This document shows positions 1-64,000 of a DNA stretch of 64,000 nt, piece after piece (position 1 is the first letter of the stretch; each line of letters begins with the position of its first letter). Source of the stretch: Klenkia brasiliensis (GTDB lineage: Bacteria; Actinomycetota; Actinomycetes; Mycobacteriales; Geodermatophilaceae); contig NZ_FNCF01000006.1 of the NCBI RefSeq assembly GCF_900100695.1, forward strand, positions 248,001 through 312,000, read 5' to 3'. The notes beneath the pieces are model-generated. The model worked only from the letters and a program-made list of their open reading frames with translations. It was not told where the DNA came from and searched no databases. Made by a program: the position numbers and the translations under genes.

Positions 1-1224
1 GCCAACCGCGACCTCGCCGGCCAGCTGCTGTCGGCCGCGGACCTCTGGGTCTTCGTCACCACCGCGGCCCGCTACGCCGACGCCGTCCCGTGGGACCTGC
101 TCCGCACCGCCGCCGAGCGCGGCACCGCGCTGGCCGTCGTCCTGGACCGGGTGCCGCCGGAGGCCACCCGCGAGGTCGCCACCGACCTGGCCGGGATGCT
201 CGAGCGGGCCGGGCTCGCCCAGGCCCGGCTGTGGGTGGTCGAGGAGCGGCCGCTGGTCGGGGGGTTCCTGCCCGAGGACCAGGTGGCCCCGCTGCGCGGA
301 TGGCTGCGCGGGCTCGCCGCCGACGCGGAGGCCCGGGCCGAGGTGGTGCGGCAGACCCTGGTCGGGGCGCTGGCCAGCCTGGACGACCGGGTGGCCGGCA
401 TCGCCCGGGCCGTCGACGAGCAGGCCGCCGCGGCCGCGGCGCTGCGCACCGCCGCCGACGCCGCCTACGGCCGGGCCGCGACCGCCGTCGACGAGGGCGT
501 GCGCAACGGCACCCTGCTGCGCGGTGAGGTGCTCGCCCGCTGGCAGGAGTTCGTCGGCACCGGGGAGTGGATGCGGTCGCTGCAGGCCGGCATCGGTCGG
601 CTGCGGGACCGGGTCACCGCCGCGGTCACCGGCCGCCCCACGCCCGCCCAGGACCTGACCGGCGCGCTGGAGAGCGGGGTGGAGCGGCTGCTGTGCTCGG
701 CCGCCGAGACCGCCGCCGAGGACACCGTCACCACCTGGCGCGGCCTGCCCGGGGGCGCCGCGGTGGTCGCCGGCCGCGAGCGGGAGCTGTCCACGGTGGG
801 CCCGCAGTTCACCGAGGCCGCCGGGCGCACGGTGCGTGACTGGCAGGGCGCGGTGCTGGAGCTGGTCCGCGGCGAGGGCGCGGGCAAGCGGTCGCGGGCC
901 CGGCTGCTGTCCTGGGGCGTGAACGGCGCCGGCGCCGTCGTCATGGTCGCGGTGTTCGCGCAGACCGCGGGCCTGTCCGGCGCCGAGGTCGCGGTCGCCG
1001 GCGGCACGACGGTGGTGGGCCAGCGGGTGCTGGAGGCGGTGTTCGGCGACTCCGCGGTGCGCCAGCTGGCCGAGCGGGCCCGCGGCGACCTCGACGAGCG
1101 GACCGGGGCGTTGCTCCACGTGGAACACCGGCGCTTCACCGAGCTGCTCGACGGTGCGGCCGGCCCCGACGACGCCGCCGGGCTGCGGGAGAGCGCCCGC
1201 ACCGTGGCGCGGGCCCGTGGCTGA
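1..1224 (+). CDS. Dynamin-like GTPase, 5'-truncated by the window edge
   Basis: The reading frame is open from base 1, so the N-terminal part with the P-loop is missing; 407 residues are visible. The first visible stretch (DLWVFVTTAARYADAVPW) resembles the segment after the G3 motif in bacterial dynamin/YfjP-type GTPases. The middle is an alpha-helical, Ala/Glu/Arg-rich stalk-like region. Near the C terminus (about residues 305-345) lies a Gly/Ala/Val-rich hydrophobic hairpin that could contact membrane. The stop overlaps the start of the next GTPase gene by 8 bp, so the two are probably cotranscribed and may act as a pair, as bacterial dynamin-like proteins often do. Function inferred: membrane remodelling or stress protection. 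A parS-like 14-mer lies inside the gene at 1113-1126. Confidence 0.72.
   Translation, partial: ANRDLAGQLLSAADLWVFVTTAARYADAVPWDLLRTAAERGTALAVVLDRVPPEATREVATDLAGMLERAGLAQARLWVVEERPLVGGFLPEDQVAPLRGWLRGLAADAEARAEVVRQTLVGALASLDDRVAGIARAVDEQAAAAAALRTAADAAYGRAATAVDEGVRNGTLLRGEVLARWQEFVGTGEWMRSLQAGIGRLRDRVTAAVTGRPTPAQDLTGALESGVERLLCSAAETAAEDTVTTWRGLPGGAAVVAGRERELSTVGPQFTEAAGRTVRDWQGAVLELVRGEGAGKRSRARLLSWGVNGAGAVVMVAVFAQTAGLSGAEVAVAGGTTVVGQRVLEAVFGDSAVRQLAERARGDLDERTGALLHVEHRRFTELLDGAAGPDDAAGLRESARTVARARG
1113..1126 (+). other. parS-like site, version A
   Basis: GCTCCACGTGGAAC. The right half GTGGAAC is one base from the parS half-site GTGAAAC; the left half has one further mismatch. In the gene it reads ttg-ctc-cac-gtg-gaa (LLHVE), with TTG, CTC and GAA, all uncommon here. 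Confidence 0.6.
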
Positions 1225-2791
1225 GCGCGGGCTCACCGCCCGCCTCGGCGGGCTGCGCGAGGCGGTCGAGGCCGCCGAGGGCCGCCTCGAGGTGCCCGAG
1301 GTGGGCCGGGCGCGCGCCCTGCTGGCCAAGGCCGGTGCCCGGCAGGCGCTGGGCGAGGCCACCGTCGTCGCGCTGGCCGGGGCCACCGGCAGCGGCAAGT
1401 CCACCCTGTTCAACGCGCTGTCCGGAGCCCAGGTCAGCACCCCCGGCGTGCGCCGGCCGACCACCGGCACCGCGCACGCCACCGTCTGGGGCGAGCCGCA
1501 GGACGCGCTGCTGGACTGGCTGCAGGTGCCCCGCCGGCACCTGCACGCCCCCACCGGCACACCGCAGGACGCGGCGCTGGACGGCCTGGTGCTGCTGGAC
1601 CTGCCCGACCACGACAGCGTCCGGCTGGAGAACCGGCTGGAGGTCGACCGGCTGGTCGAGCTGGTCGACGTCCTGGTCTGGGTGCTCGACCCCGAGAAGT
1701 ACGCCGACGCCGCGGTGCACGACCGCTACCTGGAGCCCCTGGCCGGGCACGCCGGCGCGCTGCTCGTGGTGCTCAACCAGGCCGACCGGCTGCCAGAGGC
1801 CGACCTCGCCACGATCCGGGCCGACCTGCGGCGGCTGCTGGACGCCGAGGGCCTGGCCGACGCCGCGCTGCTGCCGATCAGCGCCCGCACCGGTGCCGGG
1901 CTGCCCGAGCTGACCGGCCTGCTCGCCGACCGGGTGGCCGCCCGCCGCGCGGCCACCGAACGGCTGACCGCCGACGTCCGGGCCGCCGCCCGCGACCTGC
2001 AGCAGCACTGCGGCACCTCCTCGTCGGGGGCGCGCAGGGCCGACCGGGCCGCGCTGACCCGGGCGCTGTCCGACGCCGCCGGCGTGCCCGCGGTGACGTC
2101 GGCGGTCGAGCGCTCGACCCTCAAGGCCGGCACCGCGGCGACCGGCTGGCCGGTGGTGCGCTGGCTGGGCAAGCTGCGCCCGGACCCGCTGCGCCGGCTG
2201 CACCTGCAGGCGGGCGCGCGCAGCTCGCTGCCCGAGGTCGGGGCGGTGGAGCAGGCCGGGATGGCGACCGCCGTCCGCCGGGCCCGCGACGCCGCGGGGG
2301 AGGGCCTGCCGCTGGTGTGGGCCGACGACCTGCGCCGGCGGACGGAGGTGAGCACCGAGCGGCTGGCCGACCGGCTCGACCAGGCCGTCGCCGGCACCGA
2401 CCTGGGGTCCGACCGCACGCCGCTGTGGCAGCGCGGGGTCGGTGGGCTGCAGTGGCTGGTCACCGCGGCGGCCCTGGTCGGGGCGCTCTGGCTGCTCGTG
2501 CTGGTGGTGCTGGGCTGGCTGCAGGTCGCCGACCTGGTGCCGCTGCCGCGGGTCGAGGGCATCCCGGTGCCGACGCTGCTGCTGGTCGGCGGCCTGCTCG
2601 CCGGGTTGCTGCTCGCCGTCCTGGCGCGCCCGTTCGTGGCCTTCCGGGCGCGCAGACGGGCGCGGCGGGTGCGCCGGCGGCTGGACGACGCGGTCGCCGC
2701 GGTCGGCCAGGCGGAGGTGCTCGACCCGCTGGCCGCCACCACGGCCGACCACGACCGATTCTGCGCCGCCCTGGCCCGCGCCGCCGGCTGA
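1217..2791 (+). CDS. YfjP-type GTPase with C-terminal membrane segments
   Basis: 524 residues. A complete GTPase domain is visible: P-loop GATGSGKS near residue 55, a G3-like DLPDHDS near 132, and NQAD (G4-like) near 190. A long helical region follows, then two membrane segments near residues 415-440 and 455-475, ending in an Arg-rich tail. The GTG start at 1217 overlaps the stop of the upstream dynamin-like gene. An earlier in-frame start at 1154 would add a Pro/Arg-rich stretch that does not look like the family N terminus. The pair is a common actinobacterial arrangement. The role is unproven; membrane-associated GTPase activity is the safe statement. Confidence 0.8.
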   Translation: MAERGLTARLGGLREAVEAAEGRLEVPEVGRARALLAKAGARQALGEATVVALAGATGSGKSTLFNALSGAQVSTPGVRRPTTGTAHATVWGEPQDALLDWLQVPRRHLHAPTGTPQDAALDGLVLLDLPDHDSVRLENRLEVDRLVELVDVLVWVLDPEKYADAAVHDRYLEPLAGHAGALLVVLNQADRLPEADLATIRADLRRLLDAEGLADAALLPISARTGAGLPELTGLLADRVAARRAATERLTADVRAAARDLQQHCGTSSSGARRADRAALTRALSDAAGVPAVTSAVERSTLKAGTAATGWPVVRWLGKLRPDPLRRLHLQAGARSSLPEVGAVEQAGMATAVRRARDAAGEGLPLVWADDLRRRTEVSTERLADRLDQAVAGTDLGSDRTPLWQRGVGGLQWLVTAAALVGALWLLVLVVLGWLQVADLVPLPRVEGIPVPTLLLVGGLLAGLLLAVLARPFVAFRARRRARRVRRRLDDAVAAVGQAEVLDPLAATTADHDRFCAALARAAG

Positions 2792-2812
2792 GCGGCGGCG
2801 CGGACCGGGCCG

Positions 2813-3586
2813 TCAGTTCAGCGGGCGGACGCCGTCGGGCAGGTTGCCGCCGCGGATGGCCGCGGTGGCGAAGTCGGCGAACGCGGTCAGCGCCAGGCGC
2901 TGGGTCCACGGGCCGAAGGACACCCGGGCGACGCCGAGCTGCTCGAGCCGCGACTGCGGCAGCGAGCCGGGGACGTTGATGACCGACACCCGGCGCTCGC
3001 CGATGCCGTCCACCAGCTGCACCACGGTCGGCTCGTCGAGCAGGCCGGGCACGAACACGCAGGTTGCGCCGGCCTCCAGGAAGGCCCGGCCGCGCTCGAC
3101 GGCGTCGGCGACCACGTCGGCGCGGGGGCGGTCGCCGGCCTTGACGAAGGCGTCGGTGCGCGCGTTCAGCACGAACGGGACGCCCTCGGCCTCACCGGCG
3201 GCCACGACGGCCTCGACCGCGGCGACGGCGTCGGCCAGCGGCTTCATCTGGTCCTCGAGGTTCGCGCCGACGACGCCCACCCCGATCGCCTTGCGGACGG
3301 TCTCGCCGGGGTCGCCGTAGCCGGCCTCGAGGTCGGCGGAGACGGGGAGGTCGGTGGCGGCGGCGATGCGGCCGATGGCCTCGACCATCGTGTCCACGGG
3401 GATGACCTCGCCGTCGGCGTAGCCGTAGGAGGCGGCGATGGAGTGGCTGGCCGTGGCCAGCGCCTTCGTGCCGGGGAGGTCGGCGACGACGGTCGCGCTG
3501 ATGACGTCCCAGACGTTGACGACGGTCAGCAGCTCGGGGGCGGTGTGCAGCCGGGCCAGCGCCTCGGCCTTCTCGCGGTTGCTCAT
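2813..3586 (-). CDS. Isocitrate lyase/PEP mutase family protein
   Basis: 257 residues, normal for the stand-alone PEP mutase/2-methylisocitrate-lyase-like group. The TIM-barrel metal-site motif SADLEAGYG is near residue 85 and NARTDAF is near 150. The KKCGH catalytic signature of true isocitrate lyases is absent, so the C-C or P-C lyase substrate cannot be named; carboxyphosphonoenolpyruvate or oxaloacetate-type substrates are possible. The ATG at 3586 is chosen because upstream in-frame sequence is the tail of the STAS gene, 8 bp away on the same strand. The two are probably one transcript. Confidence 0.82.
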   Translation of the reverse strand: MSNREKAEALARLHTAPELLTVVNVWDVISATVVADLPGTKALATASHSIAASYGYADGEVIPVDTMVEAIGRIAAATDLPVSADLEAGYGDPGETVRKAIGVGVVGANLEDQMKPLADAVAAVEAVVAAGEAEGVPFVLNARTDAFVKAGDRPRADVVADAVERGRAFLEAGATCVFVPGLLDEPTVVQLVDGIGERRVSVINVPGSLPQSRLEQLGVARVSFGPWTQRLALTAFADFATAAIRGGNLPDGVRPLN

Positions 3587-3594
3587 GGGGAGAG

Positions 3595-3999
3595 TCAAGC
3601 GGACGGCGGCACGGCGGGCCCGGTGGGATCGGTGGGCGGCACCGACTCCGGCGGCATCCCGGACACGTCCAGCCGCAGCAGCAGCCCGGTCATCTCCAGC
3701 GGGCCGGTCACGATCCTCGAGGTGGCGACCACCCGCACGCCCTTGCCCGCGGACTCGGGGTGCTCGCTGACCCACACCAGCGCAGTGACCCCGGCGGAGC
3801 CGAAGAAGGTCACCCCGGACAGGTCAACTACCAGCCGGTCGGGGGCGGCCCGCAGCGCCCCCAGCAGGGACGCCTGGAGCTCGGGACCGTGCGCGGAGTC
3901 GAGGGTGCCGGTCACCCGGGCCACCAGCTCGCCGTCGTGCGGCCCGTCGGTGACGAGGGTGAAGCCGGGCTCGTCCGCGAGCCCGTGGACCGTCTCCAT
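3595..3999 (-). CDS. STAS-domain protein (anti-anti-sigma factor-like)
   Basis: 134 residues that fit one STAS domain: an N-terminal beta strand, then DRLVVDLSGVTFFGSAGVTAL near residues 52-72, which contains the conserved D-SG-x-FFGSAG segment where the phosphorylatable Ser lies. The C-terminal tail is Pro-rich. Such proteins bind anti-sigma HATPase kinases; one candidate partner type is encoded at 9983-10426. The hexamer CATGCT lies 6 nt before the ATG, a weak match to the leaderless -10 pattern seen elsewhere in the window. The 8-bp gap to the PEP-mutase-like gene suggests cotranscription. Confidence 0.82.
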   Translation of the reverse strand: METVHGLADEPGFTLVTDGPHDGELVARVTGTLDSAHGPELQASLLGALRAAPDRLVVDLSGVTFFGSAGVTALVWVSEHPESAGKGVRVVATSRIVTGPLEMTGLLLRLDVSGMPPESVPPTDPTGPAVPPSA

Positions 4000-4062
4000 G
4001 CCCTGAGCATGGGCCGGGGCGGCGCCGGGCAAACCTGGTGGCCTGCCCACCAAGATGTCGGC

Positions 4063-5010
4063 GTGGACTTCGACGAGGTGGCCGACGAGCTGTACGCGCA
4101 GCTGCCCGCCGACTTCATCGGCGCCCGCACCGACGCCGTGGCCGAGGCCAAGCGCACCGACAAGGGCCTCGCCCGCCGCATCGGCGAGCTCGGCAAGCCG
4201 ACCCTGGCCGCCTGGACGGTGAACCTGCTGGTGCGCGAGTCCGGCGACCAGGTGTCCGAGCTGGTCGAGCTGGGCGACCTGCTGCGGCGCGCCCAGGACG
4301 ACCTGGACCCCGAGCAGCTGCGGGCCCTGGACAAGCAGCGCCGGCAGGTGGTCCGCGCGCTGGCCCGGGAGGCCGCCAAGCACGCCCGCCGCGCCGGCCA
4401 CCCGGTCAGCGACGCCGTCGTCGTCCAGGTCGAGGAGACCCTCAAGGCCGCCGTCGCCGACCCGGACGCCGCGGAGCAGGTGCTCGCCGGGCGGCTCACC
4501 GGGGCGCTCGCCTACAACGGTCTGGGGACGCCGGAGCCCACCGCGCCGACCACCCGCCGCCCGCCCCGCCGTCCGGCCTCCTCCGTGCCCGCCGAGCCGC
4601 CCCCGCCGCCGCTGGACCTGGACGCGGCGCGCACCGCCAAGGCCGAGCGGGCCGCCCGCCGGGAGGCGGAGGAGAAGCTGCGCGACGCCCGGGCCACCCT
4701 GCGCACCGCCCGGGCCGCGGTGGACGACGCCGCCGCCGAGGCCGAGCAGGCGACCGCGGCGGCGAAGGAGGCCGCGCAGGCCGCCGGCGCCGCGCGCGGG
4801 GAGCGGGACGACGCCCGGGCCCGGGTCGCCGAGCTGGAGGCGGCCCTGGAGCAGGCCCGGCAGCGGGCCGCGCAGGCCGAGGAGGAGGCCGGCGCCGCCG
4901 AGGCGGAGGCCGACCGGGCCGAGGCCGACCGCGCCGCCGCGGAGGAGGACCTGCAGCGCGCCGAGGCCGACCGCGACCGCGCCCAGCAGGTGGTCGACGA
5001 GCTGTCCTGA
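4063..5010 (+). CDS. Coiled-coil protein of unknown function
   Basis: 315 residues. Residues 1-145 form a helical domain (start VDFDEVADELYAQLPADF) in a style common in actinobacterial hypothetical proteins. A Pro-rich linker near residues 160-185 follows. From about residue 190 to the end the sequence is almost only Ala, Glu, Arg and Asp in heptad-like order, which predicts a long coiled coil. GTG 4063 is chosen because it begins the conserved-looking N terminus; earlier starts would run across the STAS promoter on the other strand. I do not recognise a function. Confidence 0.68.
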   Translation: MDFDEVADELYAQLPADFIGARTDAVAEAKRTDKGLARRIGELGKPTLAAWTVNLLVRESGDQVSELVELGDLLRRAQDDLDPEQLRALDKQRRQVVRALAREAAKHARRAGHPVSDAVVVQVEETLKAAVADPDAAEQVLAGRLTGALAYNGLGTPEPTAPTTRRPPRRPASSVPAEPPPPPLDLDAARTAKAERAARREAEEKLRDARATLRTARAAVDDAAAEAEQATAAAKEAAQAAGAARGERDDARARVAELEAALEQARQRAAQAEEEAGAAEAEADRAEADRAAAEEDLQRAEADRDRAQQVVDELS

Positions 5011-5035
5011 ACCGCGCCCGTCGACGCGGACGCGC

Positions 5036-5458
5036 TCAGTTGATGATCTCGGCCCGTTCCACGTGGAGCAGGGAGGTCAGCCGGTCCCGCCACCCCTGCA
5101 GCGCCTCCGGGGTCAGGCGGGTCCAGTCCTCGACCTCCCGCACCACGCGCAGCGGCGCGGTGCTGCGGTAGGAGCGGGTGGGGTTGCCCGGGAACTTCTT
5201 GTCCGTGACGTTCGGGTCGTCCTCGAAGGGGCCGGTGGGCTCCACCTCGTAGACGTGCGGGTCGCCCGCCCCCGACCGCAGCTCGACGGCGATCTCGGCG
5301 GCCAGCCCCGCGCCGTCGACCAGCGCGGTGAAGTAGACGTGGTTCATGGTCATCTCGGGCCGGTAGTTCGACGGCCGCCCGGCGACGAGCAGCTCGCCCG
5401 GTCGCAGCGCGGCCGCCGTCCCGTGGAAGAACGGCCCGGTCTCGTCGGCGGCACCCAC
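5036..5458 (-). CDS. arr: NAD(+)--rifampin ADP-ribosyltransferase (Arr)
   Basis: 140 residues, the usual Arr length. The motifs run in order: FFHGTAAALRPG with the NAD-binding His, NYRPEMTMNHVYFTAL, YEVEPTGPFEDDPN, and TDKKFPGNPTRSYRS. The Asp in FEDDPN is the expected catalytic acid. The enzyme ADP-ribosylates rifamycins at the C23 hydroxyl and gives rifampin resistance; soil actinobacteria often carry it on the chromosome. The start is the GTG at 5458; the ATG just upstream is out of frame. A parS-like 14-mer lies in the 3' end (5056-5069). It follows the nucleoside hydrolase by 23 bp. Confidence 0.9.
   Translation of the reverse strand: MGAADETGPFFHGTAAALRPGELLVAGRPSNYRPEMTMNHVYFTALVDGAGLAAEIAVELRSGAGDPHVYEVEPTGPFEDDPNVTDKKFPGNPTRSYRSTAPLRVVREVEDWTRLTPEALQGWRDRLTSLLHVERAEIIN
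5056..5069 (-). other. parS-like site, version A
   Basis: On the minus strand the same GCTCCACGTGGAAC, within arr, again coding LLHVE with ctc and gaa. Confidence 0.6.
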
Positions 5459-5481
5459 CGGTCCATGGTGCCCCCCGGGTG

Positions 5482-6423
5482 TCAGGAGCGGTAGGAGCAC
5501 ATCCGGCTGACCAGGAACTCGACGGCGGCCCCGCTGTCCACGGTCTCGGCGACCTCGACCCCGCGGTCGGCCACCGTGCGGCGGTCCACCAGGGTCTGGC
5601 CGCGGTCGGCACCGAGCGAGGTGCCGACGACGACGTCGCGCCGCACCGTGCCCAGCGTCCCCGGCACGATCGCCTCGGTCAGGGCCAGCGCGTCGTGCAC
5701 GCAGACGCCGTCGATGCCGTAGCGGTCGCGGGCGGCGTCGACGTACTGCCGCAGGAACCCCGCGGCGGCCGCGCCCACCGGCCCGGCGTGGCGGAAGCGG
5801 GCGATGCCGGCCTCGGTGAGCACGGTCGGCAGGGTGACGTCCAGGCCGACCATGGTCACCGGCAGGTCCGAGCCCAGCACGGCCGCGGCGGCCTCCGGGT
5901 CGGCCCAGGCGTTGAACTCCGCGGCCGCGGTGACGTTGCCGCCGCGGGTGGCCGACCCACCCATCCACACCACCCGGCCGATGCGGGCGGCGGCCTCGGG
6001 GAAGACGTGCAGCAGCAGCGCGACGTTGGTCAGCGGGCCGATCGGGGCGACGGTGACCGTGCCGGGGTCGTGCGCCACGAGCAGCTCGGCGAGGGCGACC
6101 ACGGCCGGGCGGGGGTCGACCGGGACGGGGGAGGGCGGCAGCTCCACCCCGCCCAGGCCGGCGGTGCCGTGCACGTGCCCGGCCCGCTCGGGGAGGAGGT
6201 GCACCAGCGGGCCGGCGGCGCCGGCGGCGACCGGGACGTCGGAGCGGCCGGCCAGGTGCAGCACCCGCAGCGCGTTCTCGGTGACCTGGGCCAGCTCCAC
6301 GTTGCCGTGCACGGTGGTGACCAGCCGCAGGTCGACCTCCGGGCTGGCCAGCGCCAGCAGGATGGCCAGCGCGTCGTCGATGCCGGGGTCGGTGTCGATC
6401 ACCAGCGGGATGCGTTCGGTCAC
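5482..6423 (-). CDS. Inosine-uridine-preferring nucleoside hydrolase family protein
   Basis: 313 residues, full family length. The N terminus has the calcium-binding signature VIDTDPGIDDALA (Asp10, Asp12, Asp16, Asp17). The middle motif APIGPLTNVALLL and the later Asp in VCVHDALAL also fit. It should cleave the N-glycosidic bond of ribonucleosides for purine/pyrimidine salvage. The GTG start sits directly after GGAGG, which is too close for a normal ribosome site; it may be read as a leaderless or very short-leader mRNA. It is divergent from the ArsR gene, so they share a 32-bp promoter region. Confidence 0.88.
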   Translation of the reverse strand: MTERIPLVIDTDPGIDDALAILLALASPEVDLRLVTTVHGNVELAQVTENALRVLHLAGRSDVPVAAGAAGPLVHLLPERAGHVHGTAGLGGVELPPSPVPVDPRPAVVALAELLVAHDPGTVTVAPIGPLTNVALLLHVFPEAAARIGRVVWMGGSATRGGNVTAAAEFNAWADPEAAAAVLGSDLPVTMVGLDVTLPTVLTEAGIARFRHAGPVGAAAAGFLRQYVDAARDRYGIDGVCVHDALALTEAIVPGTLGTVRRDVVVGTSLGADRGQTLVDRRTVADRGVEVAETVDSGAAVEFLVSRMCSYRS

Positions 6424-6442
6424 CTCCGAGAGCCTGCCCCAC

Positions 6443-6448
6443 TAGCAT
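6443..6448 (+). promoter_or_regulatory. -10 box for leaderless arsR transcript
   Basis: TAGCAT followed by 7 nt and the GTG at 6456. The same TAnnnT-N6/7-start spacing recurs at several other genes in the window. Confidence 0.55.
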
Positions 6449-6455
6449 GCGACCC

Positions 6456-6791
6456 GTGCACCAGGGCATCGACGACTTCGCCATGCCCGACCCCGCGCAG
6501 GTGCGCGCCGCCACCGACCTGCTGCGGATGCTGAGCGACCCCACCCGGTTCTCGGTGCTGTGGGCCCTGGCGCAGGGCGAGAGCAACGTCGCGTGCCTGG
6601 CCGAGCTGGCCGGCACCTCGCCCACCGCGGTCAGCCAGCACCTGTCCAAGCTGCGGCTGGCCGGGCTGGTGCAGGGCCGCCGCGAGGGCACCTTCGTCTA
6701 CTACACCGTGGCCGAGGGCCCGCTGGGCACGCTGCTGGTCCAGGCGCTGCGCGCGGTCGGGGCCGACCCCGCCGCCGTGCGGCAGCACTGA
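6456..6791 (+). CDS. ArsR/SmtB-family transcriptional regulator
   Basis: 111 residues. It is a winged helix-turn-helix with DPTRFSVLWAL, then CLAELAGTSPTAVSQHLSKL as the recognition region and GRREGTFVYYTV as the wing. A Cys sits at the start of the helix before the recognition helix and His residues lie at both ends, so metal sensing is possible but not shown. I chose GTG 6456 because TAGCAT (6443-6448) lies exactly 7 nt before it and looks like a -10 box of a leaderless mRNA; ATG 6447 would lie inside this box. Divergent from the nucleoside hydrolase. Confidence 0.82.
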   Translation: MHQGIDDFAMPDPAQVRAATDLLRMLSDPTRFSVLWALAQGESNVACLAELAGTSPTAVSQHLSKLRLAGLVQGRREGTFVYYTVAEGPLGTLLVQALRAVGADPAAVRQH

Positions 6792-9568: not shown

Positions 9569-9575
9569 CCGCGGG

Positions 9576-14842: not shown

Positions 14843-15600
14843 CCGCCGACGAACAGCGGCGCCCAGGTGCCCGCCAGCACGCTGGTGGTCACCGCGACCG
14901 CGGCGACCAGCACGGCGCCGGCCACGAACAGGTGGTCGCGGGCGTGCAGCACCGAGCCGCGGGCGTTGGTCCGAGGGATGCCGGAGTCGAAGCCGCGGGC
15001 GTCCATCGCGGTGGCCAGCCGACCGGCCCGTCGGACCGCCCCGACCAGCAGGGTGAACGCGATGCCGGCGACCAGCCGCGCCCGGGCCACCGGGTTGCGC
15101 CCGGCCTCCACCCCGCGGGTGCGCCGGGCCAGCTGCACGGTCTCGAACTCGGCCACCAGCAGCGGCACCAGCCGCAGCGCGGCCAGCGACCCCACCGCCA
15201 CCCGCGGCGGGAACCGCCAGTGCACGGTGAGCGCGTCGGCCAGCCGCACCGGGTCGGTGGAGGCGACCAGCAGCACGCCGGGCAGCGCCAGCCCGACGAC
15301 CCGCAGCGCGATGCCCAGCGCGCCCAGCGCCCCGGCGTCCCCGAGGACGACGTTGACCACGGCCAGCGTCCCCGCGCCCAGCAGCAGGGGCCAGGTGCGC
15401 AGCAGCAGCGCCCGCGGGTCGGTCAGCCCGGCCGCGGGCAGCAGGCACAGCTCGGCGGCGACCACCACGGCCGGCGTGACGGCGTCGAGGGTGGCCAGCA
15501 GCGCCAGGCTGACCGCGACCGCGGCCAGGATCTGCGCGCACGGGTTGATCCGCGACAGCGGGACGTCGGGGGCGGGACCCAGCGACAGGGAGGCGGTCAC
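14839..15600 (-). CDS. ykoC: ECF transporter transmembrane T component (YkoC-like)
   Basis: 253 residues, with hydrophobic segments at both ends and a cytoplasmic helical part between them. The two coupling-helix motifs of EcfT appear as RRTRG near residue 165 and MDARGF near 203. Together with the two genes upstream it makes a complete energy-coupling-factor importer. GTG start at 15600 overlaps the ykoD-like stop (GTGA). Expected role: scaffold that transmits ATPase motion to the thiamin/HMP-binding S component. Confidence 0.87.
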   Translation of the reverse strand: MTASLSLGPAPDVPLSRINPCAQILAAVAVSLALLATLDAVTPAVVVAAELCLLPAAGLTDPRALLLRTWPLLLGAGTLAVVNVVLGDAGALGALGIALRVVGLALPGVLLVASTDPVRLADALTVHWRFPPRVAVGSLAALRLVPLLVAEFETVQLARRTRGVEAGRNPVARARLVAGIAFTLLVGAVRRAGRLATAMDARGFDSGIPRTNARGSVLHARDHLFVAGAVLVAAVAVTTSVLAGTWAPLFVGG

Positions 15601-16997
15601 GGCGCCACCTCGGCGTCGGCGAGGACGTCGACCAGGTCGCGGTCGTGGGTCACCGCGGCCACCGCGCAGCCGGCGGCCCGCTGCTCGGCCAGCAGGGTGA
15701 CCAGCTCCCGCCAGGTGGCGGCGTCCTGGCCGAAGGTGGGCTCGTCGAGCACCAGCACGGCCGGCGCCGTGGCCAGGGCGGTGGCCACCGACAGCCGGCG
15801 CTGCTGCCCGCCGGAGAGGGTGAAGGGGTTGGCGTCGGCGAACGGGGCCAGGCCGAGGCGCTCCAGCAGCTCCTCGGCGCGGGCCCGGGCGGTGGCCGAG
15901 CCGCTGCCGCTGCGCAGCGGGCCGAGCTCAAGCTCGTCGCGCAGCCGGCCGGTGAGGAACTGGTGCTCGGGCTGCTGGAACACCGTGCCGATGCGGGTGA
16001 CCAGGTCGCCGGCCCGCCAGCGGTGCGGACGGCGTTCCCCGTGGACGGCCAGCTCGGCCGACGCCAGCACGGACCCGGTCGTGGGTGCGCGCAGGCCGGC
16101 CAGCAGCAGCGCGAGCGTCGACTTCCCGGTCCCGTTGGGCCCGGTCACCGCGGTCACCGTCCCGGCGGCCAGCGCCAGCGAGGTGGGGTGCAGGGCCGGT
16201 GTCGTCGTCCCCCGGTAGGTGAACCCGGCCCGCTCCGCGCCCAGCCGGGTCGGCCCGGGGGTCGCAGCGGGCAGCACCAGGCTGGCCGCGCGGGGCTGCG
16301 GCGCCCAGCCGGGCGGGTGCTCGACCAGCCCGCCCTCGCGCACCTCGACCACCCGGTCCACCAGCGGCAGCCACGGGCCGGCGTCGTGGTCGACGACCAG
16401 CAGCGTGGTTCCACGTGCAACCACGGCGCGGGCCACCGCCTCGCGGACCACGGCGGCGCCGGCCGGGTCGAGCTGGGCGGTGGGCTCGTCGAGCAGCAGC
16501 AGCCCGGGTCGGCGGGCCAGCGCGCCGGCCAGCACCAGCCGCTGCTTCTCCCCGCCGGACAGCGCCTGGGTGGGCCGGTCGCGCCCGTACCGCCAGCCCA
16601 CCGCGGCCAGCGCGTCGTCCACCCGCGGCCAGATGGCCTCGGGCGGCAACCCGGCGTTCTCCAGCCCGAAGGCGACGTCGTCCCCGGCGCGGGTCATCAC
16701 CAGCTGGGCGTCGGGGTCCTGCATGAGCAGGCCCAGCCGGTCCCGGGCACCGGCGGGTGGCCGGCCGTCGACGGCCAGCTCGCCGGTGACCTCCGCGGCC
16801 TCGGCGTCCAGCAGCCCGGCGAGCGCGGCGAACAGGGTGGACTTGCCGGCCCCCGAGGCGCCGGTGACCAGCACCCGCTCGCCGGGGGCGACGTCCAGGT
16901 CGACGCCGGTCAGCGCCCAGGCCAGCCGGCCGGCGTGCCGCACCGCCAGCCCGCGGGCCCGGACGGCGGCCGGCCGGGCGGTGCCCCGCCCGGCCAC
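15597..16997 (-). CDS. ykoD: ECF transporter ATPase, fused A-A' (YkoD-like)
   Basis: 466 residues holding two complete ATPase domains in one chain. Domain 1 has GASGAGKST, LSGGEKQR and LLLLDEPTAQLD. Domain 2 has GPNGTGKST, LSGGQQRR and VLVLDEPTFGQD. This fused form is typical of YkoD-type ECF systems. It powers uptake by the YkoE/YkoC-like membrane pair. The codons gtt-gca-cgt-gga, all rare here, mark a parS-like site at 16408-16421 within domain 1. Confidence 0.88.
   Translation of the reverse strand: MAGRGTARPAAVRARGLAVRHAGRLAWALTGVDLDVAPGERVLVTGASGAGKSTLFAALAGLLDAEAAEVTGELAVDGRPPAGARDRLGLLMQDPDAQLVMTRAGDDVAFGLENAGLPPEAIWPRVDDALAAVGWRYGRDRPTQALSGGEKQRLVLAGALARRPGLLLLDEPTAQLDPAGAAVVREAVARAVVARGTTLLVVDHDAGPWLPLVDRVVEVREGGLVEHPPGWAPQPRAASLVLPAATPGPTRLGAERAGFTYRGTTTPALHPTSLALAAGTVTAVTGPNGTGKSTLALLLAGLRAPTTGSVLASAELAVHGERRPHRWRAGDLVTRIGTVFQQPEHQFLTGRLRDELELGPLRSGSGSATARARAEELLERLGLAPFADANPFTLSGGQQRRLSVATALATAPAVLVLDEPTFGQDAATWRELVTLLAEQRAAGCAVAAVTHDRDLVDVLADAEVAP
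16408..16421 (+). other. parS-like site, version B
   Basis: GTTCCACGTGCAAC, within the ykoD-like gene. On the coding strand it forces four rare codons in a row (gtt-gca-cgt-gga). Confidence 0.6.
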
Positions 16998-53849: not shown

Positions 53850-53863
53850 GTTGCACGTGGAAC
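53850..53863 (-). other. parS-like site, version B
   Basis: On the minus strand the same GTTCCACGTGCAAC; it fills part of the 48-bp gap between the DUF1348 and urate oxidase genes. Confidence 0.6.
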
Positions 53864-54326: not shown

Positions 54327-54337
54327 GGGGATCCCTC

Positions 54338-55149: not shown

Positions 55150-55156
55150 GGCTGCG

Positions 55157-55162
55157 AGGATG
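55157..55162 (-). promoter_or_regulatory. -10 box for leaderless uraD operon transcript
   Basis: CATCCT on the minus strand, 7 nt before GTG 55149. Confidence 0.4.
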
Positions 55163-55191
55163 CCAGGACACCCCCGAGTCGAGGAGAGCGC

Positions 55192-57956: not shown

Positions 57957-57969
57957 GGGCCGACACGCC

Positions 57970-57989
57970 GCATGTGCGCGCTCACATGC
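57970..57989. promoter_or_regulatory. Inverted repeat after malate synthase operon
   Basis: GCATGTG (57970-57976) and CACATGC (57983-57989), spacer 6 nt. It may be a weak terminator of the aldolase-like gene or an operator for the next gene. Confidence 0.4.
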
Positions 57990-58131
57990 CCCGCGGCGGG
58001 GGTGCCTGTGCAGGTCAGGCGGGCAGGGGGCACCATGACGTGTCGGCGACCCCGGCCGGTGCCGGTTGTGCGCATCCGAATCAGTCATGATGACGCGGTC
58101 GATCGGGTTCCGGCAGCGGGGAGGAAGGCGC

Positions 58132-59085: not shown

Positions 59086-59094
59086 CGCGGGCGG

Positions 59095-59112
59095 TACCTC
59101 ACCGCTGAGGTA
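59095..59112. promoter_or_regulatory. Perfect palindrome over the NmrA-marR promoter
   Basis: TACCTCACCGCTGAGGTA has 7-bp arms and a 4-nt centre. TTGACG (59082-59087) may be the -35, and the palindrome covers the -10 and ends 5 nt before the GTG 59118. The MarR protein in the same operon is the expected repressor. Confidence 0.65.
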
Positions 59113-59117
59113 AGCGG

Positions 59118-59936: not shown

Positions 59937-60463
59937 GCGGCGACGCGATGGACGTCATCCTGGCGCAGTGGGCCCGCGAGCGCCCCGACCTGGACTGCTC
60001 GCCGATGGGCATCATCGGCCGGATCTCCCAGCTCCAGCGCGAGGTGCACCTGGCCCAGCGGGCCACCTTCGCCCGGCACGGGCTGGACGCGCCGTCCTTC
60101 GACGTGCTGGCCGCGCTGCGCCGGGCGGGGGAGCCCTACCAGCTGACCCCGACCGCGCTGATGCGCACCGCGCTGGTCACCAGCGGGGCCATCACGCAGC
60201 GGCTGGACCGGCTGGAGGAGAAGGGCCTGATCACCCGGGAGCGCAGCGAGGCCGACGGCCGGGCCGTCGTCGTCACCCTGACCGACGCCGGGCGGACGGC
60301 GCTGGACACCGCGCTGCCCGACCACCTGGAGACCGAGCACGGCATGCTGGCCGGCCTCAGCCCCGCCGAGCGGGAGCAGCTGGCCGGCCTGCTGCGCCGG
60401 TTCCTCGTCGCGCTGGGCCGGGTGCCCGACCCGGACCCCTCAGCCGAGCAGGTCGGCGGCTGA
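59933..60463 (+). CDS. MarR-family regulator
   Basis: 176 residues. Winged helix: FDVLAALRRAGEPYQLTP, MRTALVTSGAITQRLDRLEEKGLI and RERSEADGRAVVVTLT in the wing. The C-terminal helix is for dimer formation. It probably represses its own operon by TACCTCA-N4-TGAGGTA; a phenolic or oxidant inducer would fit the NmrA partner. It converges with ald (24-bp overlap). Confidence 0.87.
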   Translation: MSGDAMDVILAQWARERPDLDCSPMGIIGRISQLQREVHLAQRATFARHGLDAPSFDVLAALRRAGEPYQLTPTALMRTALVTSGAITQRLDRLEEKGLITRERSEADGRAVVVTLTDAGRTALDTALPDHLETEHGMLAGLSPAEREQLAGLLRRFLVALGRVPDPDPSAEQVGG

Positions 60464-61555
60464 GGTCCACGGCAGGTCGTGCGCGGCGGCGACCGGCTCG
60501 CTGGTCAGCTGCCCGCCCAGGCTGGTGAGCCCCTTGGCCAGCACCGGCGAGGACGCCGCCGCGCCGCGCACACCGGAGTCGGCGACGGTGATCAGGTAGG
60601 GCAGCGTCGCCGAGGTCAGCGCCAGCGTGGAGGTGCGGGCGACCGCGCCGGGGATGTTGGCCACGCAGTAGTGCACGACCCCTTCCTCGACGTAGGTCGG
60701 GTCGGAGTGGGTGGTGGGCCGGCTGGTCTCGAAGCAGCCGCCCTGGTCGATGGCGATGTCGACGGCCACGCTGCCCGGCCGCATGGAGGCGACCATCTCG
60801 CGGCTGACCAGCTTGGGGGCCTTGGTGCCCGGCACCAGCACGGCGCCGATGAGCACGTCGGAGTCGGCCACGTAGGAGGCCAGCCGCGCACGGTTGGGCT
60901 GCACCAGGTCCAGTCGGCCCTCGAAGACGTCGGAGAGGTAGGCCAGCCGCGCCGGGTTGGTGTCGAAGACCCGCACGATGGCCCGCATGCCGACCGCGAT
61001 CTTGGCGGCCTCGGTGCCGGACACGCCGCCGCCGATGATGGTCACCTTCGCCGCGGGCGTGCCGGGGACGCCGCCCATGAGGATGCCGGCGCCGCCGGAC
61101 GGGCTCTCCAGGTGGTGCGCGGCGGCCTGCACGGCCATCCGGCCGGCGACCTCGCTCATGGGGGTCAGCAGCGGCAGCCGGCCGTCGGGGGTCTGCACGG
61201 TCTCGTAGGCGATGGCGTCGATCCGCCGCTCGACGAGGAAGTCGGTCAGCGAGCGGTCGGCGGCGGCGTGCAGGTAGGTGAACAGCTGCTGACCCTCGCG
61301 GAAGCGGTGGTACTCCGCGGGCACCGGCTCCTTGACCTTGACCACCAGGCCGGCCTCGGCGAACACGGCGTCGGCGTCGGCCACCACCCGGGCGCCGGCG
61401 GCGGCGTACTCCTCGTCGGTGAACCGGGACCCGGTGCCGGCACCGGACTGCACGAGCACCTCGTGCCCGTGGTGCACCAGCTCCGCGGCGCCGTCGGGCT
61501 GCAGCGAGACCCGCTGCTCGTTGTCCTTGATCTCGCTGGGGATGCCGACGCGCAC
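60440..61555 (-). CDS. ald: Alanine dehydrogenase
   Basis: 371 residues. From GTG 61555 the known active residues fall in place exactly: Arg15, Lys75 and His96. NAD site VTIIGGGVSGTEAAKIAVG, then SRPTTHSDPTYVEEGVVHYCVANIPG. It interconverts alanine and pyruvate plus ammonia. The start has AGGAGG 6 nt upstream. Its divergent neighbour is an Lrp-type regulator, as with aldR-ald in mycobacteria. Confidence 0.94.
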   Translation of the reverse strand: MRVGIPSEIKDNEQRVSLQPDGAAELVHHGHEVLVQSGAGTGSRFTDEEYAAAGARVVADADAVFAEAGLVVKVKEPVPAEYHRFREGQQLFTYLHAAADRSLTDFLVERRIDAIAYETVQTPDGRLPLLTPMSEVAGRMAVQAAAHHLESPSGGAGILMGGVPGTPAAKVTIIGGGVSGTEAAKIAVGMRAIVRVFDTNPARLAYLSDVFEGRLDLVQPNRARLASYVADSDVLIGAVLVPGTKAPKLVSREMVASMRPGSVAVDIAIDQGGCFETSRPTTHSDPTYVEEGVVHYCVANIPGAVARTSTLALTSATLPYLITVADSGVRGAAASSPVLAKGLTSLGGQLTSEPVAAAHDLPWTSAADLLG

Positions 61556-61574
61556 GATGTCCTCCTGGGGAACG

Positions 61575-61591
61575 GGTGGCACCATTCCACC
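61575..61591. promoter_or_regulatory. Inverted repeat in the ald-aldR region
   Basis: GGTGG-N7-CCACC. Possible half of an AldR binding region, on the ald side. Confidence 0.35.
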
Positions 61592-61648
61592 GAGCCGCTG
61601 CGGTCCAGGACCAGAGGAGCCGAACAAGTGCGCAGAGATCGAAGCCTC

Positions 61649-61667
61649 CACCGCACCGGGTGCGGTG
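61649..61667. promoter_or_regulatory. Palindrome before aldR-like gene
   Basis: CACCGCACCGGGTGCGGTG has 9-bp perfect arms around one base. It lies 7 bp before the GTG of the Lrp-type regulator and may be its autoregulatory site. Confidence 0.5.
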
Positions 61668-61674
61668 CGCGGCG

Positions 61675-62136
61675 GTGAGCGAGGGGTCCCGCCGAACGCT
61701 GGACGACGTCGACCGCCGGCTGCTGGAGCTGCTGCGCGCCGACGGACGGCGACCCAACAACCAGCTGGCCGCGGCCGTGGGCCTCTCGCCGTCCACCTGC
61801 CTGGCCCGGGTGCGCGCGCTCGTCGCCGAGGGCGTCATCACCCGGTTCACCGTCGAGCTGGACCCCGACGCCGTCGGCGACCCGCTGCAGGCGCTGGTCG
61901 CGGTGCGGCTGCGCCCGGGCGCCCGGCACCAGCTCAACGTCTTCGCCGACGGCCTGCGCCAGCTGCCGGAGGTGGCGCAGTTCTTCTACCTGGCGGGCGC
62001 GGAGGACTTCGTGGTCCACGTGCGGGCCCGGGACACCGCGCACCTGCGCGACTTCGTCACCGACCGCATCTCCACCCAGCCGATGGTGGCTGCGACCAAC
62101 ACCAGCCTCATCTTCGAGCACGAACGCGGTCGGTGA
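61675..62136 (+). CDS. aldR: Lrp/AsnC-family regulator (AldR-like)
   Basis: 153 residues. N-terminal HTH: LDDVDRRLLELLRADGR, NNQLAAAVGLSPSTCLARVRAL; C-terminal RAM domain: ALVAVRLRPGARH, FFYLAGAEDFVVHVRARD. The divergent position next to ald, and the 9-bp-arm palindrome between them, point to control of alanine metabolism. GTG 61675 begins the usual N terminus. Confidence 0.87.
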   Translation: MSEGSRRTLDDVDRRLLELLRADGRRPNNQLAAAVGLSPSTCLARVRALVAEGVITRFTVELDPDAVGDPLQALVAVRLRPGARHQLNVFADGLRQLPEVAQFFYLAGAEDFVVHVRARDTAHLRDFVTDRISTQPMVAATNTSLIFEHERGR

Positions 62137-62149
62137 CCGCGCCGGCGGG

Positions 62150-62473
62150 TCAGTGCGTGTCGGCGGCCGGCAGGGCGGCGTCGACGCCGGGCACCCAGCG
62201 GACGGCGCCGTCGAGGGTGACGACGACGACCTCGTCGACCTCGGCCGGCAGGTCCAGCCCGGCCAGCAGGGTGCTCACCGACTGGGCGGTGGCGGCCAGG
62301 GCGCGCTGCACGTCCGTGGCGGTCGTGGTTGCCTCGAGGTAGAACACCTCGGGCACGTGCGGGTCCTCGCGCACGGCGGTGCCCTCGGGGGCCTCCAGCC
62401 GCAGCGCCACGCCCACCTCGAAGGCGTGCCGCAGGTCGGTCTGCACGACCGCGCAGGTCACGAACGTCTGCAC
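62150..62473 (-). CDS. Small protein of unknown function
   Basis: 107 residues, acidic, no signal peptide or membrane helix. VQTFVTCAVVQTDLRHAFE begins a predicted alpha/beta fold and the middle has EVFYLEATTTATDVQRAL. One Cys (residue 7). The start GTG 62473 has GGGAGAGGGAG upstream. It is divergent from the YcaO gene (183 bp between them) and convergent with the Lrp gene. I do not recognise a family. Confidence 0.62.
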   Translation of the reverse strand: MQTFVTCAVVQTDLRHAFEVGVALRLEAPEGTAVREDPHVPEVFYLEATTTATDVQRALAATAQSVSTLLAGLDLPAEVDEVVVVTLDGAVRWVPGVDAALPAADTH

Positions 62474-62656
62474 CTTGTCTCCCTCTCCCCGCTCCGTGCG
62501 ATGCGGACCCGGCCGGCTCTGGAACGGGTGCGTACACGGTCTTCGCAGTCAGGGGTGCCCGTCAATGGCCGACACATGCTTCAGCGCTGAGAGATCACTC
62601 GCTGGGGTCACCCCGGTGCTCGAGCGGGTCAAGGACGCCCGGGGCACAGTGACGGG

Positions 62657-64000
62657 GTGACCGACCCGGCCGCGGCCTACCGCGCAGCCCTGCCCGACGG
62701 CTGGACCACCGAGCTGGACCTGCGCGGGTACGACCGCACCGGCGTCCCCGTCGTGGCCACCGTCTGGCGCTCCGCCGACGGCACGCGGTCCGGCCACGGG
62801 GTCGGCTACGGCGCCACGGAGGCCGCCGCGGCGACCGGGGCCTGGGGCGAGCTGGCCGAGCAGGTGCTGCTGGACGACGCACTGCTCCACGTGGAACCAC
62901 GCACGGCCACGCACCGCGAGCTGGTCGCCGAGCGCGGCGCCGACCGGGTGGCCGACCCCCGCACCCTGGTGCTCCCCGCCGGCGCCGACCCCGACCGCCC
63001 GCTGCGCTGGCTGCCCACCACCCGCTGGGCGACCGGCGAGGAGGTGCTGGTCCCCGCCGAGTTCGTCGCCCCGCACGCCGGGGGCATCGCCGGCGGACCC
63101 CCGCCCGGCGGCTGGCTGGTCACCCCGATCACCAACGGCATGGGCGCCGGGGACACCGCCGAGCGGGCCGTGGCGCACGGCATCGGCGAGCTGCTGCAGC
63201 GCGACGGCGACACCGTCGACTTCCGCGCGCTGGACACCGGCCGGGTGGTCACCGGCATCGACGACCCGCAGACCGTGGCGCTGCTGGACGCGCTGTCCGC
63301 CGTCGGCCTCGACGTCACCGTGAAGCTGGACAGCACCGAGTTCGCCGTCGTCGTGCACGCCGTGGCCCGCGACGCCGCCGCCGACCCGCCGGTGGTGCTC
63401 AGCGCGGTCGGCGAGGCCGCCGCCCCCGACCGCGCCGAGGCGGTGCGCAAGGCGGTGCTGGAGCTGGCGTCCTCCCGCGCCCGGCGGGCGTTCGCCTTCG
63501 GGCCGCTGGACCGGGTACGCGCGCTGCACCCGGACTACCTGGCCGCCGAGCTCGCGGTCCCGCTGCCGCCGCAGGAGGAGCGCGCGCTGGCCGAGATGAC
63601 CGCCTGGGACGGGCTGTCCACCGCGCAGCTGGACCAGCTGCTGGCCCCGATGTGGCGGCGGAGCTCGGAGGTGGCCTTCGCCGACCTGCCGACGTCCGCC
63701 GTCACCGGGCCCACCGACACCCTGGCGCTGTACCGGGAGCGGCTGGCCGGTTTCGACCTGCTGGTCGCCCCCGCCCGGGTCGGCGACGTGCACGTGGCCA
63801 AGGTGCTGGTGCCCGGGCTGGAGGTGGAGACGCTGTCCTACGGCCGGATCGGCGAGCGGGTGCTGCGCCGGCTGCTGGACCGCGGCTCGGACCTCGTCGG
63901 GCTGGGGGCGCCGTCCGGGGACCGGCGGCCGGTGGTGCTCACCCCCGAGGCCACCGAGCGGGTCGGCGGCCCGGCCTGGCTGGACGTCGCCGCCGTGGCC
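62657..64000 (+). CDS. YcaO-domain protein, 3'-truncated by the window edge
   Basis: 448 residues are visible and the frame is still open. YcaO features: GYGATEAAAATGAWGELAEQV near residue 56, GMGAGDTAERAVAHGIGELLQRDGD near 165, and VRKAVLELASSRARRAF near 262, giving the ExxxE and ExxxR ATP/Mg residues. YcaO enzymes phosphorylate amide backbones to form azolines, thioamides or amidines, or modify ribosomal protein S12. No precursor peptide or partner is seen inside the window. GTG 62657 begins it. A parS-like site lies within (62884-62897). Confidence 0.85.
   Translation, partial: MTDPAAAYRAALPDGWTTELDLRGYDRTGVPVVATVWRSADGTRSGHGVGYGATEAAAATGAWGELAEQVLLDDALLHVEPRTATHRELVAERGADRVADPRTLVLPAGADPDRPLRWLPTTRWATGEEVLVPAEFVAPHAGGIAGGPPPGGWLVTPITNGMGAGDTAERAVAHGIGELLQRDGDTVDFRALDTGRVVTGIDDPQTVALLDALSAVGLDVTVKLDSTEFAVVVHAVARDAAADPPVVLSAVGEAAAPDRAEAVRKAVLELASSRARRAFAFGPLDRVRALHPDYLAAELAVPLPPQEERALAEMTAWDGLSTAQLDQLLAPMWRRSSEVAFADLPTSAVTGPTDTLALYRERLAGFDLLVAPARVGDVHVAKVLVPGLEVETLSYGRIGERVLRRLLDRGSDLVGLGAPSGDRRPVVLTPEATERVGGPAWLDVAAVA
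62884..62897 (+). other. parS-like site, version A
   Basis: GCTCCACGTGGAAC within the YcaO gene, coding LLHVE (ctg-ctc-cac-gtg-gaa) exactly as in the two other version-A copies. Confidence 0.6.

What the first reader, a model, noticed from the sequence alone, without database searches (positions are those of the whole stretch)
1113..62897. Five parS-like 14-mers in two exact versions suggest a ParB-bound, origin-proximal region
GCTCCACGTGGAAC occurs at 1113-1126, 5056-5069 (minus) and 62884-62897; GTTCCACGTGCAAC at 16408-16421 and 53850-53863 (minus). Both resemble the known ParB site GTTTCACGTGAAAC with the CACGTG centre kept. Each has one identical half (GTGGAAC) and one half with a further mismatch. 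Three copies force LLHVE in unrelated proteins (dynamin-like, Arr, YcaO) with the same uncommon codons ctc and gaa, and one forces gtt-gca-cgt-gga in the ATPase. Such rare-codon islands in a GC3-saturated genome suggest selection on DNA, not protein. The asymmetric half-sites would be unusual for parS.
Basis: partly seen in the sequence, partly recalled or inferred. Interest (0 to 1): 0.75.

Follow-up and report, generated by a model that had tools for sequence, protein, structure and literature searches.

The report
Origin-clustered parS chromosome-segregation sites
Five short repeats in this soil actinobacterium look like outer members of a cluster of docking sites for the chromosome-segregation protein ParB around the replication origin, a known kind of system whose distal sites are one base short of perfect and mostly hidden inside genes.

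Summary
In detail: all five 14-mers are there, each one base from the palindrome GTTCCACGTGGAAC. The genome (a Klenkia, inferred from ParB identity) has 23 places within one mismatch of GTTYCACGTGRAAC, all around parAB and dnaA; the reversed pattern gives 1. In a single-contig relative all 29 lie in a 20% arc that includes parB. The ParB/origin reading is supported by sequence; binding is not shown.

GTTCCACGTGGAAC is a published parS (P. aeruginosa, M. xanthus) and occurs in 103 of 112 family genomes; the other 9 have GTTTCACGTGAAAC. Less ordinary: one-mismatch sites are strongly enriched, two-mismatch sites are not; 45 of 49 mismatches are at positions 2 or 4; such sites tend to lie further out. 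In genes they use rare codons (GAA 3.4%), and in two relatives the YcaO site trades one asymmetric version for the other through a Leu codon swap. Against this: these sites turn over, and in the more distant of two relatives their conservation is not above control. CTC is not rare, and one site is intergenic.

The parts
1113..1126 (+). Site 1, GCTCCACGTGGAAC, one mismatch (position 2) to GTTCCACGTGGAAC; codes LHVE near the C-terminus of a P-loop, dynamin-like protein
   Evidence: identical in G007, G005, G003, G004, replaced (5-6 differences) in G001, G002, G008; G006 not aligned there
5056..5069 (-). Site 2, GCTCCACGTGGAAC on the minus strand; codes LHVE 11 codons before the end of the frame with an Arr domain
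   Evidence: identical in G001, lost in G007 (2 differences, 3 mismatches to parS); G002 and G008 do not align across it
16408..16421 (+). Site 3, GTTCCACGTGCAAC (position 4 mismatch on the minus strand); codes V-A-R-G-T with four rare codons in an ABC-transporter ATPase
   Evidence: identical in G007, lost in G001, G002, G008
53850..53863 (-). Site 4, GTTCCACGTGCAAC on the minus strand; intergenic, one base after the stop codon of the DUF1348 gene and 33 bases before the first start codon of the uricase gene
   Evidence: identical in 5 of 5 relatives aligned across it (G001, G002, G005, G007, G008)
62884..62897 (+). Site 5, GCTCCACGTGGAAC; codes LHVE in a YcaO-domain protein
   Evidence: identical in G007, G005, G002; GTTGCACGTGGAAC (Leu CTC to TTG) in G001 and G008; lost in G003, G004, G006
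1..1224 (+). Host gene of site 1 (starts upstream of the window): P-loop protein with a GGSTGAGKS motif, dynamin-like by inspection
   Evidence: frame open from C11:247239; no Pfam hit
5036..6691 (-). Frame holding site 2; rifampin ADP-ribosyltransferase domain (PF12120) at residues 421-523 of this long frame, so the real start is probably further in
15597..16997 (-). Host gene of site 3; ABC transporter ATPase
   Evidence: PF00005, 2 stretches
62591..64000 (+). Host frame of site 5 (runs off the window); YcaO cyclodehydratase domain
   Evidence: PF02624

Best explanation
The five 14-mers are distal parS sites of the chromosomal ParA-ParB-parS segregation system. ParB is expected to load on them as a dimer clamp, slide into neighbouring DNA and help form the origin-proximal partition complex that ParA moves and on which SMC loads (mechanism inferred from the ParB family). 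The lineage's site is GTTCCACGTGGAAC. Exact copies lie on average nearer parAB and oriC; copies with one tolerated mismatch (mostly position 2 or 4 of one half) lie on average further out. In genes, one-mismatch copies occur where the protein has Leu, Val or Ala in place of the Phe or Pro that an exact copy would encode, so Leu-His-Val-Glu can be written CTC-CAC-GTG-GAA or TTG-CAC-GTG-GAA. Shown: clustering, enrichment, partial conservation, mismatch positions, codon swap. Inferred: ParB binding and its strength, and the coding cause, which does not explain intergenic site 4.
For: Own genome: 23 places with 0-1 mismatch, reversed control 1; 18 on C11 (17-332 kb), 5 on C6 (26-94 kb). ParB_N at C11:149176 and DnaA at C11:155521. 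One exact and one mixed copy lie just upstream of parA. The start of C6 abuts the start of C11: C11:17248 and C6:26381 map 45.1 kb apart in G007, against 43.6 kb if joined directly. Genus: 9 of 9 genomes have 19-30 places, controls 0-2. Family: GTTCCACGTGGAAC in 103 of 112 genomes, GTTTCACGTGAAAC in exactly the other 9. In 448 kb of origin-side sequence the counts by mismatch 0/1/2/3 are 14/9/1/16, against means of 0.08/0.08/2.1/27.7 in 12 order-3 Markov simulations. Exact sites are identical in 10 of 12 aligned in G008 against 27 of 120 CACGTG-centred controls (Fisher p 5e-5); one-mismatch sites, G007 and G008 pooled, 10 of 16 against 87 of 267 (p 0.017). Of the 6 changed one-mismatch cells in that comparison, 3 still have exactly one mismatch: C11:56787 and 310884 in G008, 332507 in G007. 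Own ParB is a ParB/Spo0J homologue by sequence and, by spacing, has the parS-contacting residues named in the passages read of PMC7383237, with Arg for K171 and His for Q162 (His in every displayed row but L044).
Against: No binding data exist for this organism. One-mismatch sites turn over: site 1 is lost in 3 of 7 relatives aligned, site 2 in 1 of 2, site 3 in 3 of 4, site 5 in 3 of 8. In G008 alone one-mismatch sites are not conserved above control (3 of 7 against 27 of 120, p 0.21). The distance difference has p 0.025, 0.005 and 0.07 in three genomes that share ancestry. Site 4 keeps its mismatch although it is not in a gene. A C at the same place as in GCTCCAC (position 3 of the 16-mer) was rare, 2 cases, among 1030 predicted parS sites cited in PMC3899335 (passage). 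In P. aeruginosa sites with two mismatches, and in C. glutamicum degenerate sites with at least three, were not bound in vivo (passages), so tolerance of one mismatch here rests on counts, not on a test.
Confidence: 0.86

Rival explanations
1. Only the exact sites are functional parS; the one-mismatch copies in the window are decaying relics or sites in birth that ParB hardly uses.
For: One-mismatch sites turn over faster than exact ones and lie on average further out; each is one step from an exact site; in G008 the exact site C6:47627 has become a one-mismatch site; C at this position was rare in a published set.
Against: 9 one-mismatch sites against 0.08 expected but only 1 with two mismatches against 2.1 expected: decay without selection should run on into two and three mismatches. 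Mismatches at positions 2 or 4 in 45 of 49, orthologues counted in each genome. Changes from one one-mismatch form to another and identity of site 4 in 5 of 5 suggest selection on the one-mismatch state.
Confidence: 0.13
2. The motif belongs to another DNA-binding protein with a CACGTG palindrome (a transcription factor, or a Noc-like protein) and not to ParB.
For: A second protein with a ParB_N domain exists on contig C7, not studied.
Against: Clustering round parAB and dnaA in the own genome and round parB in G003. Two exact or mixed copies about 1.1 kb before parB in 10 of 11 named Klenkia, Modestobacter and Blastococcus loci; L028, whose contig begins 54 bases before the match, has none. 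Noc sites differ at positions 1 and 6 (passages), where all five window sites keep G1 and A6. Same palindrome as published parS of two bacteria of other phyla.
Confidence: 0.03
3. Coincidence of common peptides (LLHVE) and codon usage, with no DNA-level function.
For: Three of five sites encode the same LLHVE peptide.
Against: Unrelated host proteins; rare codons GAA, GTT, GCA, CGT, GGA; an intergenic copy identical in 5 of 5; 23 of 23 copies near the origin.
Confidence: 0.01

Closest known systems
Chromosomal ParABS of P. aeruginosa (parS TGTTCCACGTGGAACM) and M. xanthus (TGTTCCACGTGGAACG)
   Same: Same 14-base palindrome; sites near oriC and parAB; in P. aeruginosa affinity falls with mismatches, sites with one intact arm bind better than sites with both arms changed, and the CACGTG core matters (passages).
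   Different: P. aeruginosa has 4 such sites and no further copy when one mismatch is allowed; M. xanthus has a cluster of 22 in about 3 kb. Here 23 are spread over about 427 kb, 9 of them with one mismatch.
Streptomyces ParB/parS (S. coelicolor 23 central sites and one near a chromosome end; S. venezuelae 16 within about 200 kb)
   Same: Many parS scattered round oriC in an actinobacterium (passages of PMC4852455).
   Different: The Streptomyces sequence given there has TTTCAC-type halves (printed as GTTTCACCTGAAAC); here 13 exact copies are GTTCCACGTGGAAC and one, upstream of parA, is the mixed GTTTCACGTGGAAC.
Corynebacterium glutamicum parS1-10
   Same: Actinobacterial cluster near oriC; one site inside a gene, trpCF (passages of PMC7083940).
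   Different: 10 sites in 35 kb, 9 of them intergenic; degenerate sites with at least 3 mismatches not bound. In the own genome 13 of 23 fall in coding frames by a simple GC3 rule.
P. aeruginosa half-parS (GTTCCAC/GTTTCAC)
   Same: Each window site contains an intact GTTCCAC half (half-sites: passages).
   Different: Half-sites are hundreds of copies over the genome; these are 13-of-14 matches confined to the origin domain.

Membership tests
Chromosomal parS (ParABS) | 14-16 bp palindrome with CACGTG core close to a known parS consensus | tested here: met
   All five have one mismatch to GTTCCACGTGGAAC; 14 copies without mismatch to GTTYCACGTGRAAC elsewhere in the same genome
Chromosomal parS (ParABS) | Clustered near oriC and the parAB locus, not spread over the chromosome | tested here: met
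   23 of 23 sites on C11 and the abutting start of C6, parB and dnaA on C11; 29 of 29 in a 20% arc in G003
Chromosomal parS (ParABS) | Genome encodes ParA and a ParB with the parS-contacting residues | tested here: met
   parA-like and parB frames adjacent; ParB matches solved ParB/Spo0J chains, among them the Caulobacter DNA-binding domain 6s6h at E 3.6e-23; residues equated by spacing, not by a displayed alignment to Caulobacter ParB
Chromosomal parS (ParABS) | Sites conserved as DNA between species beyond background | tested here: inconclusive
   Exact sites: yes (10 of 12 in each of G007 and G008, p 0.005 and 5e-5). One-mismatch sites, the kind in the window: 7 of 9 in G007 (p 0.034), 3 of 7 in G008 (p 0.21), pooled p 0.017, with turnover
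Chromosomal parS (ParABS) | ParB binds the sites and spreads from them in vivo | not testable with these tools
   Needs ChIP-seq or a CTP-dependent loading assay
Noc binding sites (NBS) | A1 and C6 in each half-site; protein with Q173, R201 and Lys at 179 or 184 | tested here: not met
   Sites keep G1 and A6; by spacing own ParB has R and G at the 173 and 201 equivalents. It does have Lys at the 184 equivalent, as do some relatives with the GTTTCACGTGAAAC consensus
Half-parS sites of P. aeruginosa | Isolated heptamers scattered over the whole genome | tested here: not met
   13-of-14 palindromes confined to the origin domain; isolated heptamers were not counted

The most novel reading that the evidence does not exclude
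Klenkia maintains a graded centromere: exact parS copies nearer oriC and a selected outer set of imperfect copies with one broken position (2 or 4 of a single half), tuned to load ParB more weakly over a 0.4 Mb domain. The imperfect state itself would be under selection: codon swaps keep exactly one mismatch, and intergenic site 4 keeps its mismatch in 5 of 5 relatives with no protein constraint.
Probability: 0.25. Interest if true: 0.6.

Novelty: new member of a known kind. Interest (0 to 1): 0.38.

Why it matters
It is a natural example of chromosome-segregation sites apparently selected inside protein genes, where DNA function dictates rare codons and sometimes amino acids in unrelated proteins. 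The sharp limit between one and two mismatches and the two tolerated positions give a testable rule for what this ParB accepts; one of the tolerated changes was rare in a published set of predicted parS sites. The family also holds a mutually exclusive change of parS consensus (GTTTCACGTGAAAC in 9 genomes of 3 genera, GTTCCACGTGGAAC in 103 genomes of 9 genera) without a change in the base-contacting ParB residues named in the passages read.

Tried and rejected
Rejected: chance and peptide coincidence; Noc site; protein coding as the only cause of asymmetry (intergenic site 4 is asymmetric and conserved).

Led little further: a comparison of ParB residues between loci with the GTTCCACGTGGAAC consensus (24 rows) and the rest (78 rows; 5 partial or duplicate rows left out). 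Some residues differ (K and T at own positions 211 and 214, for example), but none is among the base-contacting residues named in the passages read, and the differences are confounded with descent. Pfam gave no family for the site 1 host. A translation of a G002 stretch was only looked at. PMC5815017 held none of six searched terms. No paper in the library holds both 'Geodermatophilaceae' and 'parS' as whole words (open-access papers only). A search for the 14-mer gave 9 papers: four read as passages (PMC5098823, PMC4368675, PMC3899335, PMC7022226), five seen as a listing.

Papers seen as passages only: PMC7383237, PMC7022226, PMC10419367, PMC7083940, PMC4852455, PMC5098823, PMC4368675, PMC3899335. 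The others were seen in search listings.

Limits of the counts: the match lists were cut, so mismatch positions were taken only from the four genomes with complete lists; G008's list was incomplete. Sites 2-4 could be compared only in relatives whose stretches were fetched. Distances in G000 assume that C6 joins C11 without a gap.

I added the rarity of C at position 3 of the 16-mer, and lowered confidence from 0.88 to 0.86 for it.
Full report
WHAT WAS CLAIMED AND WHAT IS THERE. Against the palindrome GTTYCACGTGRAAC (up to 2 mismatches) the window holds these five and no other; each has one mismatch, and 100 shuffles give a mean of 0.31 and a maximum of 2. Sites 1, 2 and 5 encode L-H-V-E in high-GC3 frames, and site 3 encodes V-A-R-G-T. 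Site 4 is intergenic, in 48 bases between a DUF1348 gene and a uricase gene. In 25 GC3-typed frames of the window (8,650 codons) GAA, TTG, GTT, GCA, CGT and GGA are rare, but CTC is not (23.8% of Leu).

GENOME-WIDE MAP. The window is C11:248001-312000 of a 4.45 Mb, 14-contig genome. Allowing one mismatch, GTTYCACGTGRAAC occurs at 23 places: 18 on C11 (17-332 kb) and 5 on C6 (26-94 kb); the reversed pattern occurs once. The ParB_N domain is at C11:149176-149457 and the DnaA domain at C11:155521-156006, so the window sites lie 94-155 kb from dnaA. An exact and a mixed copy, 35 bases apart, lie just upstream of parA. Alignment to G007 puts the start of C6 next to the start of C11, so the cluster spans about 427 kb. 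In G003, one contig of 4.6 Mb, all 29 sites lie in 926 kb that include its parB. All 9 genomes of the genus searched have 19-30 places.

HOW SHARP THE MOTIF IS. In the 448 kb of origin-side sequence fetched (C11 whole and C6 1-100000), places with 0, 1, 2 and 3 mismatches number 14, 9, 1 and 16; twelve order-3 Markov simulations give means of 0.08, 0.08, 2.1 and 27.7. Enrichment therefore stops between one and two mismatches. Of 49 one-mismatch sites in the four genomes with complete lists (G000, G001, G003, G007; orthologues counted in each, so not independent), 24 have the mismatch at position 2, 21 at position 4 (all to G), 3 at position 3 and 1 at position 6. Median distances from the parAB pair, exact against one-mismatch: 74 and 151 kb in G000 (p 0.025), 60 and 194 kb in G003 (p 0.005), 74 and 154 kb in G007 (p 0.07).

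CONSERVATION. The five window sites: site 1 is identical in 4 of 7 relatives aligned there (G007, G005, G003, G004) and replaced with 5-6 differences in 3 (G001, G002, G008). Site 2 is identical in 1 of 2 (G001 yes, G007 no). Site 3 is identical in 1 of 4 (G007). Site 4 is identical in 5 of 5. Site 5 is identical in 3 of 8 (G007, G005, G002), swapped to GTTGCACGTGGAAC in 2 (G001, G008) and lost in 3 (G003, G004, G006). At site 1 the loss goes with HV to AA or AG in the protein. At site 5 the swap is CTC to TTG, both Leu, and TTG is 1.3% of Leu codons. For all 23 own sites against two relatives: in G007 10 of 12 aligned exact sites and 7 of 9 one-mismatch sites are identical, against 60 of 147 aligned CACGTG-centred control 14-mers; in G008 10 of 12 and 3 of 7, against 27 of 120. 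Fisher p: 0.005, 0.034, 5e-5 and 0.21; pooled one-mismatch 10 of 16 against 87 of 267, p 0.017. In G007 one of the two non-identical exact sites differs only by an alignment gap at its first base. Of the 6 changed one-mismatch cells, 3 still have exactly one mismatch (C11:56787 and 310884 in G008, C11:332507 in G007) and 3 do not (C11:253056 in G007, 249113 and 264408 in G008). Random changes would keep one mismatch in 11%, 7% and 0.7% of cases for one, two and three changes.

WHY TWO ASYMMETRIC VERSIONS. By a simple GC3 rule 13 of 23 sites fall in coding frames (the strand is uncertain at C11:195153 and 235603, and site 4 was taken out because its frame has no start codon before the site). 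In the commonest frame an exact site reads Phe-His-Val-Glu (TTC CAC GTG GAA): C6:79641, C11:17248, 106846, 235603. One-mismatch sites in that frame have Leu (CTC or TTG) or Val (GTC) in place of Phe: C6:26381, C6:93971, C11:249113, 253056, 310884. In another frame Val-Pro-Arg-Gly-Thr (exact, C11:78071) becomes Val-Ala-Arg-Gly-Thr (C11:264408). The two versions are thus single-step forms that a Leu or Ala at that place permits. This is an inference and does not explain intergenic site 4, so tolerance of ParB for positions 2 and 4 is also needed. In a published set of 1030 predicted parS sites a C at the corresponding place (position 3 of the 16-mer) was seen in two only (passage of PMC3899335), so the tolerance at position 2, if real, is unusual.

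LINEAGE CONSENSUS. GTTCCACGTGGAAC occurs in 103 of 112 genomes of the family (4-15 copies; 9 of 12 genera) and GTTTCACGTGAAAC in the other 9 (1-2 copies; 3 genera); no genome holds both. Allowing one mismatch to GTTCCACGTGGAAC the 103 genomes have 9-24 places, reversed controls 0-4. Near parB in 80 named loci, 10 of 11 Klenkia, Modestobacter and Blastococcus loci carry GTTCCACGTGGAAC and none GTTTCACGTGAAAC; of the 69 others 61 carry GTTTCACGTGAAAC and 3 carry GTTCCACGTGGAAC. The parS-contacting ParB residues named in the passages of PMC7383237 are shared by both groups in the rows displayed, as far as spacing allows them to be equated.

MECHANISM. From the ParB family (recalled, with abstracts and passages seen): ParB dimers bind parS, close as CTP clamps and slide into flanking DNA, and the complex is moved by ParA and loads SMC. 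In P. aeruginosa, whose parS is the same palindrome, affinity falls with mismatches, sites with one intact arm bind better than sites with both arms changed, and two-mismatch sites are not bound in vivo (passages), which fits the cut-off seen here.

VERDICT. A parS cluster by every sequence test, a new member of a known kind. The unusual part is the position-restricted, mostly gene-embedded set of one-mismatch sites, which tends to lie in the outer domain and whose use by ParB is untested.

Noticed in passing
G000:C7:47756-47941 (locus L017): A second protein with a ParB_N domain (E 9.5e-7, open frame 528 aa) away from the origin contig; nature unknown.
   Followed up: no
L044, L050, L056, L072, L074, L075 (Nocardia loci): Near parB these Nocardia loci carry one-mismatch parS-like sites mostly changed at position 6 (GTTTCACGGGAAAC), unlike positions 2 and 4 in Klenkia; tolerated positions may differ by lineage.
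   Followed up: partly
G075-G083 (three genera placed in the family): Only these 9 of 112 genomes carry GTTTCACGTGAAAC and none of them carries GTTCCACGTGGAAC; they mark where the parS consensus changed.
   Followed up: partly
window 5036-6691 (-): Frame with a rifampin ADP-ribosyltransferase (Arr) domain whose 3' end carries site 2.
   Followed up: no
G003:C1:1582518 and 2508675: Two one-mismatch sites about 450-480 kb from parAB, far outside the cluster core of this single-contig genome.
   Followed up: no
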